64,000 nucleotides of DNA from Actinomycetes bacterium (GTDB taxonomy: Bacteria > Actinomycetota > Thermoleophilia > Solirubrobacterales > Solirubrobacteraceae), in assembly GCA_021792455.1 (NCBI GenBank), contig JAJYUP010000002.1, forward strand, positions 19,040 through 83,039. The letters are read 5' to 3'. The notes under the pieces are model-generated. The model was not told where the DNA came from. It was given only the letters and a program-made list of their open reading frames with translations, and did not search any database. Below, one piece after another: positions 6,955 through 14,642 of this stretch (positions within the stretch are counted from its first letter, which is position 1; each line of letters starts with the position of its first letter). The position numbers were made by a program, and so were the translations under genes.

Positions 6955-7896
6955 TCAGCCGACGAGCGTCTCGACGCCAGAGGCCTCTATCGTGCGCGCC
7001 AAGCCATCCCTCAAGGACACCTTTGGAGTCCACTGAAGCAGCTGCTCTGCGAGCGAGATGTCTGGGCGCCGCTGCTTTGGGTCGTCTACTGGGAGCGCCT
7101 CGAAGACGATCTCAGAGCTCGAGCCCGTCACCTCGAGCACCGTCTCGGCGAGCTGCAGCAGCGTGAACTCGTCGGGGTTGCCGATGTTCACGGGGTCGTG
7201 GTATCCAGACTCCGCGAGCGCGATCATCCCCCTTATCAAGTCGGTCACGTAGCAGAACGAGCGCGTCTGGCTGCCGTCTCCAAAGACGGTGATCGGGCGG
7301 TTGCCGAGCGCCTGCCTCAGAAAGGTTGGGATCGCCCGCCCATCGTGGGGCCTCATCCTCGAGCCATAAGTGTTGAAGATGCGCACGATCGAGGTGTCAA
7401 CTCCCTGCTGCCGGTGGTAGGCCATCGTCAGCGCCTCTGCGTAGCGCTTCGCCTCGTCGTAGACGCCCCTTGGCCCAATTGGGTTGACGTGGCCCCAATA
7501 CCCCTCCGGCTGGGGATGGACCTCAGGGTCACCGTAGACCTCGCTCGTCGAGGCGAGCAGGAAGCGGGCGCGCTTGCTCTTCGCAAGCCCAAGGGTGTGA
7601 TGGGTGCCGTAGGAGCCGACCTTCAGGGTGTGCAGCGGCAGCCGGAGGTAGTCGATCGGCGAGGCGGGAGAGGCGAGGTGATAGACGAAGTCGATCGGCT
7701 CCTCGATGCGGTAGGGCTCGATTATGTCGACGTTCAGGTGCGCGAAGGCAGCTTCGTCGCGGATGTGCTCTATGTTGACGAGAGAGCCTGTCTCGAGGTT
7801 GTCGACGCAGATCACCCTGTGGCCGCGGGACAGCAGCTCGTCGCACAGATGGGAGCCGAGGAAGCCGGCGCCGCCGGTCACGAGGCAGGTGGACAC
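6955..7896 (-). CDS. NAD-dependent epimerase/dehydratase, UDP-glucuronate decarboxylase-like
   Basis: [19 protein letters not shown] Rossmann motif; [56 protein letters not shown] start inferred at 7896. Confidence 0.85.
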
Positions 7897-7920
7897 GCCG
7901 TGAGGATAACCTCTTTGACG

Positions 7921-9579
7921 ATGAGCGCACAGGAGCAGGCATCGCCAGCGCACGATCCGATCGCGGTCAGCGCGAGCGACGAGCAGCGGACGATCGCGCC
8001 GATCGTCGGGCCTCACGACCCGCGGAGGTTCACGGACTCTGGGATCGAGATCAAGTCGCTCTACACGGAGCAGGACCTGCCAGAGCAGCTGCATCTCGGC
8101 GAGCCTGGCAGCTTCCCGTTCACGAGGGGCGTCCACAGGGAGATGTACAGGAGGCAGCTGTGGACGATGCGCCAGTACGCTGGCTACGCCTCCGCGAAGG
8201 AGAGCAACGAACGGTACAGGTACCTGCTCAGCAAGGGCTCGACGGGCCTCTCGATGGCCTTCGACCTGCCAACCCAGCTCGGCCTCGACTCTGACAACCC
8301 CCGCTGCCTTGGGGAGGTCGGCAGGACGGGAGTCGCGATCGACACGATCGAGGACATGAGGACCGCCTTCGCGGAGATACCTCTCGAGAAGGTCTCGACC
8401 TCGATGACGATCAACGCGCCTGCCGCCTGCCTGCTCGCGCTCTATCAGATCGTCGGCGAAGAGCAGGGGCTCAAAAGCGATCAGCTCAGGGGCACGACCC
8501 AGAACGACGTGTTGAAGGAGTACATCGCGCGGGGCAACTACATCTACCCACCGCAGCCGACGATGCGCCTCACGACTGACATCTTCGAGTACTGCCAGGA
8601 GCACATCCCGAAGTGGAACACGATCTCGATATCTGGCTACCACTTCCGCGAGAAGGGCTGCTCCGCCGTCCAGGAGGTCGCCTTCACTCTCAGCTCAGGA
8701 ATCGCCTACGTCACAGCAGCGATGGAGAGGGGCCTCGACGTCGACGACTTCGCGCCAAGGCTTGCGTTCTTCTTCAACGGCCACAACAACGTCTTCCAAG
8801 AGGTCGCGAAGTTCAGGGCGGCGAGGAGGATGTGGGCGCAGATCATGAGGGAGCGGTTTCACGCCAAGAGCGAGAAGTCGATGATGCTCCGCTTCCACAC
8901 GCAGACGGGCGGAGTCACCCTCACCGCCCAGCAGCCGGAGAACAACATCGTCAGGGTCGCCCTCCAGGGCTTCGCAGCCGTCTGCGGCGGAACCCAGTCC
9001 CTCCACACGAACGGCTTCGACGAGGCGCTCGCTCTGCCGACGGAGCGCTCAGCGAAGATCGCACTCAGAACGCAGCAGATCCTCGCGCATGAGTCTGGCG
9101 CGGCAGACACCGTCGACCCCTTCGCAGGCTCATACTTCGTAGAGGCGCTCACAGACGAGATCGAAGAGAGGGCGAACGAGCTGATCGCGAAGGTCGACTC
9201 CCTTGGAGGCTCTGTGAACGCGATTGCGTTCATCACCGCTGAGATCGACGAGTCCGCTTGGGGCTACCAGGAGCGCTATCGCCTCAAGCAGGACATAGTC
9301 GTCGGGGTCAACGCCTTCGAGGAGGAGGACGTCGAGGTGCCTGACCTGCTCCGCGTCGACCCCGCCTCTGAGCGGGAGCAGGTCGAGCGGCTGAAGGCGT
9401 TCAAGGCCCGTCGCGACAACGCCCTCGCGCAGCAGCGCCTGCAGGAGCTGAAGAGCGCCGCCGCAGGCAGCGAGAACCTCGTCCCCTTCATAAAGCAGGC
9501 GTTGAAGGACGACTGCTCGATTGGCGAGGTCTGCGGCGCGATGAAGGACGTCTTCGGCGCCTACAGCCCAACCTTCTGA
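7921..9579 (+). CDS. Methylmalonyl-CoA mutase-family large subunit (TIM-barrel part only, no B12-binding domain)
   Basis: [69 protein letters not shown]; ends [14 protein letters not shown] with no cobalamin DxHxxG domain. Confidence 0.92.
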
Positions 9580-9634
9580 ACCTCCGTCGAGGCCTGACAC
9601 CCGCATCTGAGGAACCCGCGAGGGGGCTTCGGAG

Positions 9635-9782
9635 GCGACGCTGCATGCAGCGTCGCGGGCAGGCCCGCATGCGGGCCTGCCGACGGAGAGGCGCATGCGC
9701 CTCTCCGCAGCCGGCGCATGCGCCGGCTGTTGCGCAGAGCCGCATGCGGCTCTGCGAAGGAGCCCGCACATGTGCGGGCTCC
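9635..9782. repeat. Array of six near-contiguous perfect palindromes (22-24 bp), each centred on CATG
   Basis: Checked base by base: 9635-9656, 9658-9681, 9684-9707, 9708-9729, 9733-9756, 9759-9782; five have a GCATGC centre, the last ACATGT. Confidence 0.97.
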
Positions 9783-9805
9783 AAGGGAGCAAATAGGATG
9801 GCGCG

Positions 9806-10306
9806 GTGGCGATGCAGGATCTCTCAATCGGGACGAGCGCATATGAAGTCGTTCTCGCGCTCCACATCGCAGGCGCGCTCGTCGCCTTCGGATCGATCTT
9901 CGCCTTCCCGATCATGTTCGCGCTCGCACGCAGGCAGGATCACAGGAGCCTTCCGCTCATGCACAGGATCGAACGGATGATCGAGAGGGTGCTCATCAAC
10001 GGGGGGCTTCTCATCGTCGTCGGCGCAGGCGCCTACCTCGCGACTGCAGGCAAAGACTGGAGCAGGTTCTTCGTTGATTGGGGCCTTGGCGCAGCGATCG
10101 TGATTGGAGGGCTCGTCGGCTCAGTGATGATCCCGGCGAGCAGGCGTGCGGAGGCGGCCGTGAGCCGGGATGTCGAGAAGGCCTCCGAAGGGGAGCTCGA
10201 GCTGAGTGACGAGTACAGGCGCCTCGCGCGGCGGCTGACAGTGACGGGCCTGCTCTGCAGCGCGCTCGTGCTTGCGACGATCTTCATCATGGTGCTGAAG
10301 CCGTGA
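9806..10306 (+). CDS. Four-TM integral membrane protein, DUF2269-like
   Basis: VVLALHIAGALVAFGSIFAFPIMFALARRQ ... LVLATIFIMVLKP; four hydrophobic segments. Confidence 0.65.
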   Translation: MAMQDLSIGTSAYEVVLALHIAGALVAFGSIFAFPIMFALARRQDHRSLPLMHRIERMIERVLINGGLLIVVGAGAYLATAGKDWSRFFVDWGLGAAIVIGGLVGSVMIPASRRAEAAVSRDVEKASEGELELSDEYRRLARRLTVTGLLCSALVLATIFIMVLKP

Positions 10307-11641: not shown

Positions 11642-12550
11642 ATGATCTCATCGGAGGCGCAGCGCACGCTCGTGAAGTCGCCGCCTGAGCTTTGGGCGGA
11701 GCTGAGCGACCCGGCTAGCCTCGCTCGCCATCTCGGTGCCCTCGGTGAGGTGAAGATCACCCGCCTGCAGCCTGAGCAGTCGATCGAGTGGGAGGCGGAG
11801 GCCGCCTCAGGCACGGTGGAGCTGAAACCGTCTGGCTGGGGCACGAAGGTGCGCCTGACGGTGAGACGCGAGCTGAGCACGGGAGAGGCCCCAGGGGCGC
11901 GACGCACGGACGATGGCGGAGCGGATGCGAGCGGGCTGGAGGCGGATGCGACGGAGCTCGTGGCCGATGCGACGGAGCTCGTGGCCGATGCGACGGAGCT
12001 CGTGGCCGATGCGACGGAGCCGGTGGCGGGCAGGCGAGCGGTCCCGCAGCCGCAGACAGGGCAGGAGGAGGTCGCTGGCGAGTCAGAGGACGCAGCACAC
12101 CCGAGAGGCACGGGCTGGCGGGCTTTCTTCAGGGCGCTCAAACCTCGGCGTCGGCGGATCGCCGCAACGACCCAACCGGCCATCGCAAGCGGTGAGAAGC
12201 TCGGCCTCGCGACCGATCCGGAGCGCGCGGCAGGGCAAGAGGGGGGTCCCGCTCCAGAGGAGGCGGGGCAGCGGCAGGAGGTGAGCGGCGGGGAGCAGGC
12301 GGGCAGGAGGCAGGAGGCGAGCGGCCGAGAGCAGGCGGGACAGCGGCAGGCAGCAGGTGATCGGCGAGAGCCTCGCGATCCAGGGGCAGCCTGTCCGCCA
12401 GGCCCCTCTCATCCAGACCCATCGGCGGGGGCGATCGCTGCGGAGGTCAAAGCCCTCGAGGTCGAGATCGCGCAGCAGACGACAGAGATCCTCGCAGCCG
12501 TGCTCGACAGGCTGGGCGCTGCCCACCACCGGCCCTTCTCGCGAATCTAG
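11642..12550 (+). CDS. SRPBCC/CoxG-like domain protein with long low-complexity repetitive tail
   Basis: N-terminal SSEAQRTLVKSPPELWAELSDPASLARHLGALGEVKITRLQPEQSIEWEAEAASGTVEL; ATELVAD repeats; C-terminal helix EVEIAQQTTEILAAVLDRLG. Confidence 0.55.
   Translation: MISSEAQRTLVKSPPELWAELSDPASLARHLGALGEVKITRLQPEQSIEWEAEAASGTVELKPSGWGTKVRLTVRRELSTGEAPGARRTDDGGADASGLEADATELVADATELVADATELVADATEPVAGRRAVPQPQTGQEEVAGESEDAAHPRGTGWRAFFRALKPRRRRIAATTQPAIASGEKLGLATDPERAAGQEGGPAPEEAGQRQEVSGGEQAGRRQEASGREQAGQRQAAGDRREPRDPGAACPPGPSHPDPSAGAIAAEVKALEVEIAQQTTEILAAVLDRLGAAHHRPFSRI
11940..12022 (+). repeat. In-frame 21-bp tandem repeat (GATGCGACGGAGCTCGTGGCC), about four copies
   Basis: Consecutive gatgcgacggagctcgtggcc units encoding (DATELVA)n. 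Confidence 0.9.
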
Positions 12551-14414: not shown

Positions 14415-14642
14415 ATGCACCACCGCCGATCGCTCGTGAAGCTCGTCAACCCCACCGCGGGCGCCTGTCCGGAGGAGGCGGCGGCGATCGCCGCCGCAAT
14501 AGAGCAGTTCATCGCGGAGACGACACCTGTGCGGGGGCCGCAGCGCCGAGAACGCGATCGCTGGCGTGAGGCGGCGCTGCTCGAAGGCGTGCTCAGCGGC
14601 CCAGCATGCGACCTCGCCGAAGACGTCTGGCTAAATACCTGA
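14415..14642 (+). CDS. Acyl-CoA carboxylase epsilon-like small subunit
   Basis: 75-aa ORF directly downstream of carboxylase beta; CPEEAAAIAAAIEQFIAET...DRWREAALLEGV resembles actinobacterial AccE/PccE. Confidence 0.55.
   Translation: MHHRRSLVKLVNPTAGACPEEAAAIAAAIEQFIAETTPVRGPQRRERDRWREAALLEGVLSGPACDLAEDVWLNT

What the first reader, a model, noticed from the sequence alone, without database searches (positions are those of the whole stretch)
9635..9782. Array of six consecutive perfect palindromes, all centred on CATG but with different arms
Seen directly: between the acyl-CoA mutase gene and a membrane protein gene there are six perfect inverted repeats: GCGACGCTGCATGCAGCGTCGC (9635-9656), GGCAGGCCCGCATGCGGGCCTGCC (9658-9681), CGGAGAGGCGCATGCGCCTCTCCG (9684-9707), CAGCCGGCGCATGCGCCGGCTG (9708-9729), CGCAGAGCCGCATGCGGCTCTGCG (9733-9756), GGAGCCCGCACATGTGCGGGCTCC (9759-9782). 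Gaps are only 0-3 nt and centres are 23-26 bp apart. Arm sequences differ between units while self-complementarity is perfect in every one, so the shape rather than the sequence appears to be maintained. As RNA or ssDNA each folds into a 9-10 bp stem with a CAUG tetraloop; that loop is itself self-complementary (possible kissing interactions). Terminators normally have a U-tract and longer loops, REP/BIME elements share sequence, and CRISPR repeats are identical with spacers; none of these fits. Function is unknown: possible structured 3'UTR/ncRNA, protein-binding platform, or product of a palindrome-generating mobile process.
Basis: partly seen in the sequence, partly recalled or inferred. 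Interest (0 to 1): 0.88.

Follow-up and report, generated by a model that had tools for sequence, protein, structure and literature searches.

The report
Mobile arrays of self-mirroring DNA palindromes
Soil bacteria of the Solirubrobacteraceae family carry dispersed runs of three or more perfect 24-letter DNA palindromes just after genes, whose letters change freely as long as both halves change together, which suggests that the DNA itself copies one half onto the other.

Summary
In detail: six perfect 22-24 bp palindromes centred on RCATGY lie at 9635-9782. They are one member of an apparently undescribed family. I collected 158 distinct arrays (530 units; 502 perfect over 20 bp). A scan of 85,462 species genomes gave 98 real arrays, all in Solirubrobacterales MAGs. 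In the order, hits fall in 4 of 54 genera, all in one family.

Arrays sit close downstream of stop codons. Many occupy the same intergenic site in several species. Identical arrays also occur at unrelated loci of one genome. Orthologous arms differ by 350 two-sided versus 22 one-sided changes, with no G-U excess. A two-base model fits arm-to-arm copying at about 200-300 times the mutation rate. Point mutation plus selection underpredicts two-sided change about 20-fold.

Best reading: a clade-specific, dispersing REP/BIME-like element with no RAYT in nearly all carriers, kept symmetric at DNA level, probably by hairpin template switching, and possibly used as hairpin clusters at gene 3' ends. 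The factor that reads the CATG core and the dispersal enzyme are unknown.

The parts
9635..9656 (.). palindrome unit 1, GCGACGCTGCATGCAGCGTCGC
   Evidence: perfect, arms 11
9658..9681 (.). palindrome unit 2, GGCAGGCCCGCATGCGGGCCTGCC
   Evidence: perfect, arms 12
9684..9707 (.). palindrome unit 3, CGGAGAGGCGCATGCGCCTCTCCG
   Evidence: perfect, arms 12
9708..9729 (.). palindrome unit 4, CAGCCGGCGCATGCGCCGGCTG
   Evidence: perfect, arms 11
9733..9756 (.). palindrome unit 5, CGCAGAGCCGCATGCGGCTCTGCG
   Evidence: perfect, arms 12
9759..9782 (.). palindrome unit 6, GGAGCCCGCACATGTGCGGGCTCC (core ACATGT)
   Evidence: perfect, arms 12
7198..9579 (+). upstream gene: methylmalonyl-CoA mutase family protein (ORF start probably overextended); the array lies about 55 bp after its stop codon
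   Evidence: PF01642, E 9e-214; ORF list
9806..10306 (+). downstream gene: DUF2269 predicted integral membrane protein
   Evidence: PF10027, E 2e-11; mutase-DUF2269 synteny seen in most genus genomes that hold the gene, four of which carry an array in between

Best explanation
The array belongs to a clade-specific family of short dispersed elements. Each element is a run of three or more (3-6) abutting 24-bp palindromes. The core YRCATGYR is nearly fixed and the outer part of each arm is nearly free, provided the two arms match. Shown: the elements spread within genomes, persist at the same gene-end sites across species, and change their arms in pairs. Inferred: symmetry is kept at DNA level. 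In single-stranded DNA (lagging strand) or a cruciform each unit folds into a 10-bp hairpin with a CATG loop. When one arm mutates, the replicating polymerase switches template inside the hairpin and copies one arm onto the other, so a one-sided change is soon either erased or made two-sided. Inferred and weaker: the fixed CATG core is read by an unknown host factor or dispersal enzyme, and at gene 3' ends the hairpin clusters act in both directions as transcription-end or RNA-end structures, which would explain their retention there and their relative scarcity between divergent genes.
For: Family: 158 distinct arrays and 530 units, 502 perfect over 20 bp, 387 distinct sequences. Less biased census of 800 kb of genome G002: CATG centres with 8/8, 7/8, 6/8 matching outer pairs number 29, 8, 19, whereas the other 15 cores give at most 5 at 8/8; so units are perfect or unrecognisable, and nearly all perfect ones lie in 8 arrays. 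Covariation: 350 two-sided against 22 one-sided differences in orthologous arrays, transversion pairs about as common as transition pairs; strict set 64 against 5; six-species alignment 19 of 30 pairs changed on both sides, none on one side only. DNA level: 34 mismatched pairs of 4240 outside the core, G-T 4, A-C 7, others 23; gene-oriented set G-U 3, A-C 3, others 14. Model: at the observed mismatch level selection alone predicts about 0.006-0.009 two-sided change per pair, arm conversion about 0.385, observed 0.14-0.24; one-sided and mismatch levels fit conversion at about 200-300 times the mutation rate. Dispersal: an identical 72-bp triplet at two unrelated loci of one genome, shared sequence ending just outside the palindromes at GGA...GAACG; within-genome dialects 13 SD above label permutation; end motif GATGYTGTT next to CCnnnnGG ends. 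Gene ends: co-directional 84, convergent 34, divergent 17 against junction counts 407, 94, 95 in G002; median 13 bp from stop codons. At one site genome G002, without the array, has a single hairpin GCAGCCTTTTGGCTGC after the same stop codon. Template switching at quasipalindromes makes them more perfect in E. coli (PMC7202029) and is proposed to create and maintain RNA hairpins (PMC8794818).
Against: No polymerase event, ssDNA intermediate or dispersal enzyme was seen. Ordinary template switching should act on every hairpin-forming repeat in every bacterium, yet arrays of this kind were found only in this family, so something clade-specific is still missing. Template switching alone does not explain the fixed CATG core or the usual minimum of three units. 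The one-sided to two-sided ratio comes partly from arrays selected for palindromicity and similarity; the 800 kb census and the site-based orthology are the less biased parts. Arm-pair divergence (0.14-0.24) is below the neutral model value (0.385), so the arms are also constrained. 17 arrays do lie between divergent genes. No expression data exist for the 3'-end role.
Confidence: 0.6

Rival explanations
1. Dedicated DNA-hairpin substrate: an unknown recombinase, transposase or nuclease recognises the folded unit by its CATG loop and stem shape and, when it cuts and religates, regenerates the second arm by fill-in. Perfect symmetry is then a by-product of that enzyme's reaction, not of ordinary replication.
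For: Fixed YRCATGYR core with free stem, as in structure-plus-loop recognition; dispersal with defined ends and no obvious target duplication; patchy distribution within one family; three abutting units as the usual minimum.
Against: No candidate enzyme was found. The HUH Y1 transposase family is missing from 23 of 24 genus genomes and 7 of 8 array-bearing sister genomes tested. Two-sided changes also accumulate at orthologous, apparently unmoved sites.
Confidence: 0.22
2. Selection on RNA: tandem hairpins in mRNA 3' ends (intrinsic hairpin-cluster terminators or RNA-stabilising ends) are maintained by ordinary compensatory mutation.
For: Position just after stop codons, more arrays between convergent than divergent genes, RNA fold z -8.0, single hairpin in place of an array at one site; hairpin clusters near stop codons without U-tracts are reported to terminate transcription, more so in GC-rich genomes (PMC8355165).
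Against: No wobble excess: G-U is 3 of 20 and 4 of 34 mismatches, about the random share, whereas an RNA-type model predicts over 90% G-U and more than 20-fold too little two-sided change. Transversion pair changes are about as common as transitions. The loop would not need to be CATG.
Confidence: 0.12
3. REP/BIME elements mobilised by a RAYT transposase.
For: Intergenic, palindromic, clustered, dispersed, clade-specific, conserved non-palindromic motif beside one end; Stenotrophomonas BIMEs were noted to keep palindromes through complementary changes (PMC2817692).
Against: No Y1_Tnp in nearly all array carriers, and four matches in a relative without array hits; no array beside the Y1_Tnp matches of the genus; no shared arm sequence; perfect rather than imperfect palindromes.
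Confidence: 0.04
4. Chance, assembly artefact or neutral local curiosity.
For: None beyond the fact that the genomes are MAGs.
Against: Independent MAGs, orthologous positions, controls near zero.
Confidence: 0.01

Closest known systems
REP / BIME / REPIN elements with RAYT transposases (PMC2817692, PMC3116915)
   Same: Short palindromic, intergenic, high-copy, clustered, clade-specific, dispersing; conserved short motif beside the palindrome; some complementary change within palindromes reported.
   Different: Here arm sequence is free, symmetry is perfect, units abut at 24 bp, the core is fixed as RCATGY, arrays of at least three are the rule, and no RAYT is present in nearly all carriers.
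Hairpin-cluster intrinsic terminators (PMC8355165)
   Same: Several hairpins within tens of bases after stop codons, no U-tract needed, common in GC-rich genomes.
   Different: Those are ordinary short hairpins of any loop, not recurrent dispersed elements with one fixed loop and perfect Watson-Crick symmetry.
Quasipalindrome-associated template-switch mutation (PMC7202029) and its proposed role in hairpin maintenance (PMC8794818)
   Same: Makes imperfect inverted repeats more perfect in one event; predicts two-sided changes without G-U intermediates.
   Different: Known as a mutational mechanism at single sites and in rRNA stems; I found no description of it as the force that keeps a dispersed bacterial element family symmetric.
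Long perfect inverted repeats in Nematomorpha mitochondrial genes (PMC6649704)
   Same: Perfect inverted repeats preserved alongside other constraint.
   Different: Inside coding genes of mitochondria; not short abutting arrays and not dispersed elements.

Membership tests
REP/BIME | Extragenic location | tested here: met
   Arrays lie at gene junctions: 84 co-directional, 34 convergent, 17 divergent (my own ORF scoring, with ORFs cut at the array)
REP/BIME | High copy, dispersed within a genome | tested here: met
   About 10 arrays per Mb in G002; identical copies at unrelated loci
REP/BIME | Conserved element sequence shared by copies | tested here: not met
   239 distinct 8-mer arms; only YRCATGYR nearly fixed
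REP/BIME | Associated RAYT (Y1_Tnp) gene in the genome, flanked by REPs | tested here: not met
   1 of 24 genus genomes and 1 of 8 array-bearing sister genomes have Y1_Tnp; no array beside the genus matches
REP/BIME | Short conserved motif beside the palindrome | tested here: inconclusive
   GATGYTGTT next to one class of array end, G at -3 in 79%; not GTAG, partner unknown
Intrinsic (U-tract) terminator | GC stem followed by a U-run | tested here: not met
   0 terminator-like sites at 9300-10100
Hairpin-cluster terminator | Two or more hairpins within about 80 nt after a stop codon | tested here: met
   Median 13 bp from stop codons; six hairpins in the window fold
Hairpin-cluster terminator | Transcript 3' ends map to the cluster | not testable with these tools
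   No RNA data
Structured RNA element | Compensatory change passing through or tolerating G-U pairs | tested here: not met
   G-U 3/20 and 4/34 of mismatches, about the random share
Rfam families | Score above gathering threshold | tested here: not met
   No match in the window
Template-switch-maintained palindrome | Two-sided changes in excess of what single mutations allow, no wobble bias | tested here: met
Template-switch-maintained palindrome | Direct observation of one-step two-sided events | not testable with these tools
   Needs mutation-accumulation or reporter data

The most novel reading that the evidence does not exclude
A selfish or domesticated DNA element whose inherited character is symmetry itself: it spreads as a triplet of hairpins recognised by the CATG loop, and a dedicated or hairpin-driven reaction rewrites one arm from the other at each replication or transposition, so that sequence drifts freely while shape persists.
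Probability: 0.3. Interest if true: 0.92.

Novelty: new variant of a known kind. Interest (0 to 1): 0.8.

Why it matters
Covariation is the accepted proof of a functional RNA. Here is a natural bacterial data set in which covariation is nearly total, yet wobble pairs are not favoured and the pattern fits a DNA copying process. It offers hundreds of replicate hairpins, at orthologous and at moved positions, to measure how fast arms are rewritten and whether template switching can imitate selection on RNA structure. That bears directly on the open question how perfect stems are kept (PMC8794818). It also adds a dispersed-repeat family that lacks the transposase type known to go with REP elements.

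Tried and rejected
Rfam: nothing. U-tract terminator and sigma-70 promoter: none. RAYT/Y1_Tnp as mobiliser: rejected. SbcD (hairpin nuclease) loss as the reason: only one genus genome scores over the NCBIfam cut-off and 13 more give weak hits, so its presence is unclear; not followed further. Viral origin: the one viral contigs match has no palindromic arms. Other lineages: 17 pattern matches outside Solirubrobacterales are plain tandem repeats without palindromic arms. MAFFT misplaced arms in a first ortholog alignment (A1); an ungapped unit alignment (A2) replaced it. The search for empty orthologous sites gave one clean case only. Literature searches found no earlier description in the held library; subscription papers and preprints are not held.

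Full report
OBSERVATION. The six palindromes are at the stated coordinates and perfect. Only one other palindrome with arms of at least 8 bp exists in the 64 kb window, and shuffled sequence gives about one palindrome with arms of at least 11 bp per 0.6 Mb. They lie about 55 bp after a methylmalonyl-CoA mutase family gene and 23 bp before a DUF2269 gene. As single-stranded DNA the stretch folds into exactly six hairpins with CATG loops, z -9.25.

A FAMILY. The window's own genome (G000, a 3.15 Mb, 83% complete MAG) holds further arrays with other arms, at least on contigs C111, C114, C117 and C131. A pattern for three consecutive RCATGY cores is strongly enriched in most genomes of the genus against its reversed control. 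I fetched about 95 loci and scanned 85,462 species genomes for three cores at exact 24-bp spacing: 115 loci, of which 98 are real palindrome arrays, all in MAGs titled Solirubrobacterales or Solirubrobacteraceae; the other 17 are coding or simple tandem repeats without palindromic arms. Contig lengths identify G007 with isolate palsa_744, so the genus is probably GTDB 'Palsa-744' (that name is from memory). In 232 genomes of the order, 29 have hits, in 4 genera, all in one family, with controls near zero; within genera the distribution is patchy.

ANATOMY. In the first set, arrays hold 3 (48), 4 (29), 5 (8), 2 (4) or 6 (3) units with centre spacing 24 (157 of 234), range 22-26. In sister genera the usual form is exactly three abutting 24-mers, 72 bp. 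The unit consensus is about CGGRGSSGYRCATGYRCSSCYCCG; CATG is required by my search, the R and Y beside it are nearly invariant, and positions 7-12 from the centre are highly variable. If loop sequence is left free, all hairpins inside arrays have CATG, but the arrays were defined by CATG; in-register neighbours just outside show the rare variants TATA, CACG and CTTG. One class of array end is preceded by GATGYTGTT.

SYMMETRY WITHOUT SEQUENCE. 502 of 530 units are perfect over 20 bp; 34 of 4240 pairs outside the core are mismatched. To lessen selection on palindromicity I took 800 kb of G002 and scored every CATG by its eight outer pairs: 8/8 29, 7/8 8, 6/8 19; the 15 other palindromic cores give 0-5 at 8/8. 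So there is a sharp perfect class and almost no partly decayed class, and nearly all the perfect units lie in 8 arrays.

SAME SITES, DIFFERENT ARMS. Flank comparison shows arrays at the same intergenic site in up to six species. The window site (mutase-DUF2269) carries an array in G000, G007, G015 and a partly decayed one in G003, a lone remnant unit in G013, and none in the other syntenic genomes. Unit-by-unit similarity of orthologous arrays is higher in the orthologous orientation (mean 7.4) than reversed (5.2) or between unrelated arrays (5.0), so part of the sharing is inheritance; at the window site itself the arms are too diverged to tell. Across orthologous arrays, differences are two-sided 350 times and one-sided 22 times. 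In the six-species alignment A2 98.3% of cells pair, 19 of 30 pairs change on both sides, none on one side only, and sliding partners by 1-3 columns destroys the signal. In the strict set (pairs chosen for similarity, hence biased low) arm pairs differ two-sided at 0.14 while fourfold codon sites differ at 0.39.

RNA OR DNA? If RNA pairing were the reason, G-U should dominate the exceptions. It does not: oriented by the upstream gene, G-U 3, A-C 3, others 14; strand-free, G-T 4, A-C 7, others 23. Pair changes are transitions and transversions about equally. A 16-state model scaled to the fourfold distance makes the point quantitative: selection strong enough to hold mismatches near 0.8% predicts two-sided divergence below 0.01; an RNA-like version predicts over 90% G-U; arm-to-arm conversion at 200-300 times the point-mutation rate predicts mismatch 0.007-0.010, one-sided 0.010-0.015 and two-sided 0.385, to be lowered by constraint on part of the arm (observed 0.008, about 0.011-0.015, 0.14-0.24). 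The model ignores stochastic tunnelling and array-to-array conversion; the latter can spread but not create symmetric variants. I therefore infer copying of one arm onto the other. Template switching at quasipalindromes is the known reaction of that kind (PMC7202029; PMC8794818).

DISPERSAL. Arrays of one genome resemble each other more than arrays of other genomes (difference 0.45, 13 SD above label permutation). Two loci of one genome (L195, L246) share an identical 72-bp triplet with unrelated flanks; the shared stretch ends at GGA on one side and GAACG on the other. L231 and L247, again one genome, differ by a single two-sided pair. No target duplication was evident by eye. The RAYT transposases that go with REP elements (PMC2817692) are missing in nearly all carriers.

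PLACE AND LIKELY ROLE. Junctions with arrays: co-directional 84, convergent 34, divergent 17; convergent and divergent junctions are equally common in G002 (94 and 95), p 0.017 by count and 0.001 by intergenic length; median distance 13 bp to stop codons and 31 bp to starts (gene calls are my own ORF scoring). At one site where two species have an array, G002 has a single hairpin GCAGCCTTTTGGCTGC after the same stop codon. Hairpin clusters close to stop codons are reported as U-tract-free terminators (PMC8355165). A bidirectional 3'-end role is therefore plausible but only inferred; harmless-site retention of a mobile element would look similar.

VERDICT. Real, not chance, not an artefact, and not a member of REP/BIME by the tested criteria, though it works like one in location and spread.

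Noticed in passing
window 14478-14497: Single perfect 20-bp palindrome GCGGCGGCGATCGCCGCCGC, about 87 bp after the carboxyltransferase gene stop (14391); GATC-centred, not part of the family.
   Followed up: no
window about 11900-12100: Head-to-tail coding repeats (ATELVAD repeated) within the ORF at 11642-12550, which has no Pfam match.
   Followed up: no
L093:1584 and 4616, L095:1071 (genome G010): A second palindrome family centred on CGCG: GGATTCGTTCCGCGCGGAACGAATCC twice and GGATTGCTTCCGCGCGGAAGCAATCC once; the variant differs by two-sided changes, so arm conversion may not be limited to CATG units.
   Followed up: no
L141:3909, L154:3863, G002 C2 near 95.7-96.0 kb: Similar palindromes around CCATGG (GTATAACCATGGTTATAC, CGCTGTATCACCATGGTGATACAGCG, CGTATAACCATGGTGATACG), AT-rich arms, at separate loci near array sites; they look like an operator of a dimeric regulator.
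   Followed up: no
L083:3970, L085:2398: 24-bp perfect palindromes with core GTATAC in register beside CATG arrays: core variants of the same element.
   Followed up: partly
genomes G001, G006, G009, G011, G016, G018, G020: Genus members with no hit to the strict triple-core pattern, although several are over 90% complete; useful as array-free comparison genomes.
   Followed up: partly
L186 (G007:C232:27434-27796): The only full-length Y1_Tnp (IS200/IS605-type) match found in the genus; no CATG palindromes within 1.5 kb.
   Followed up: yes
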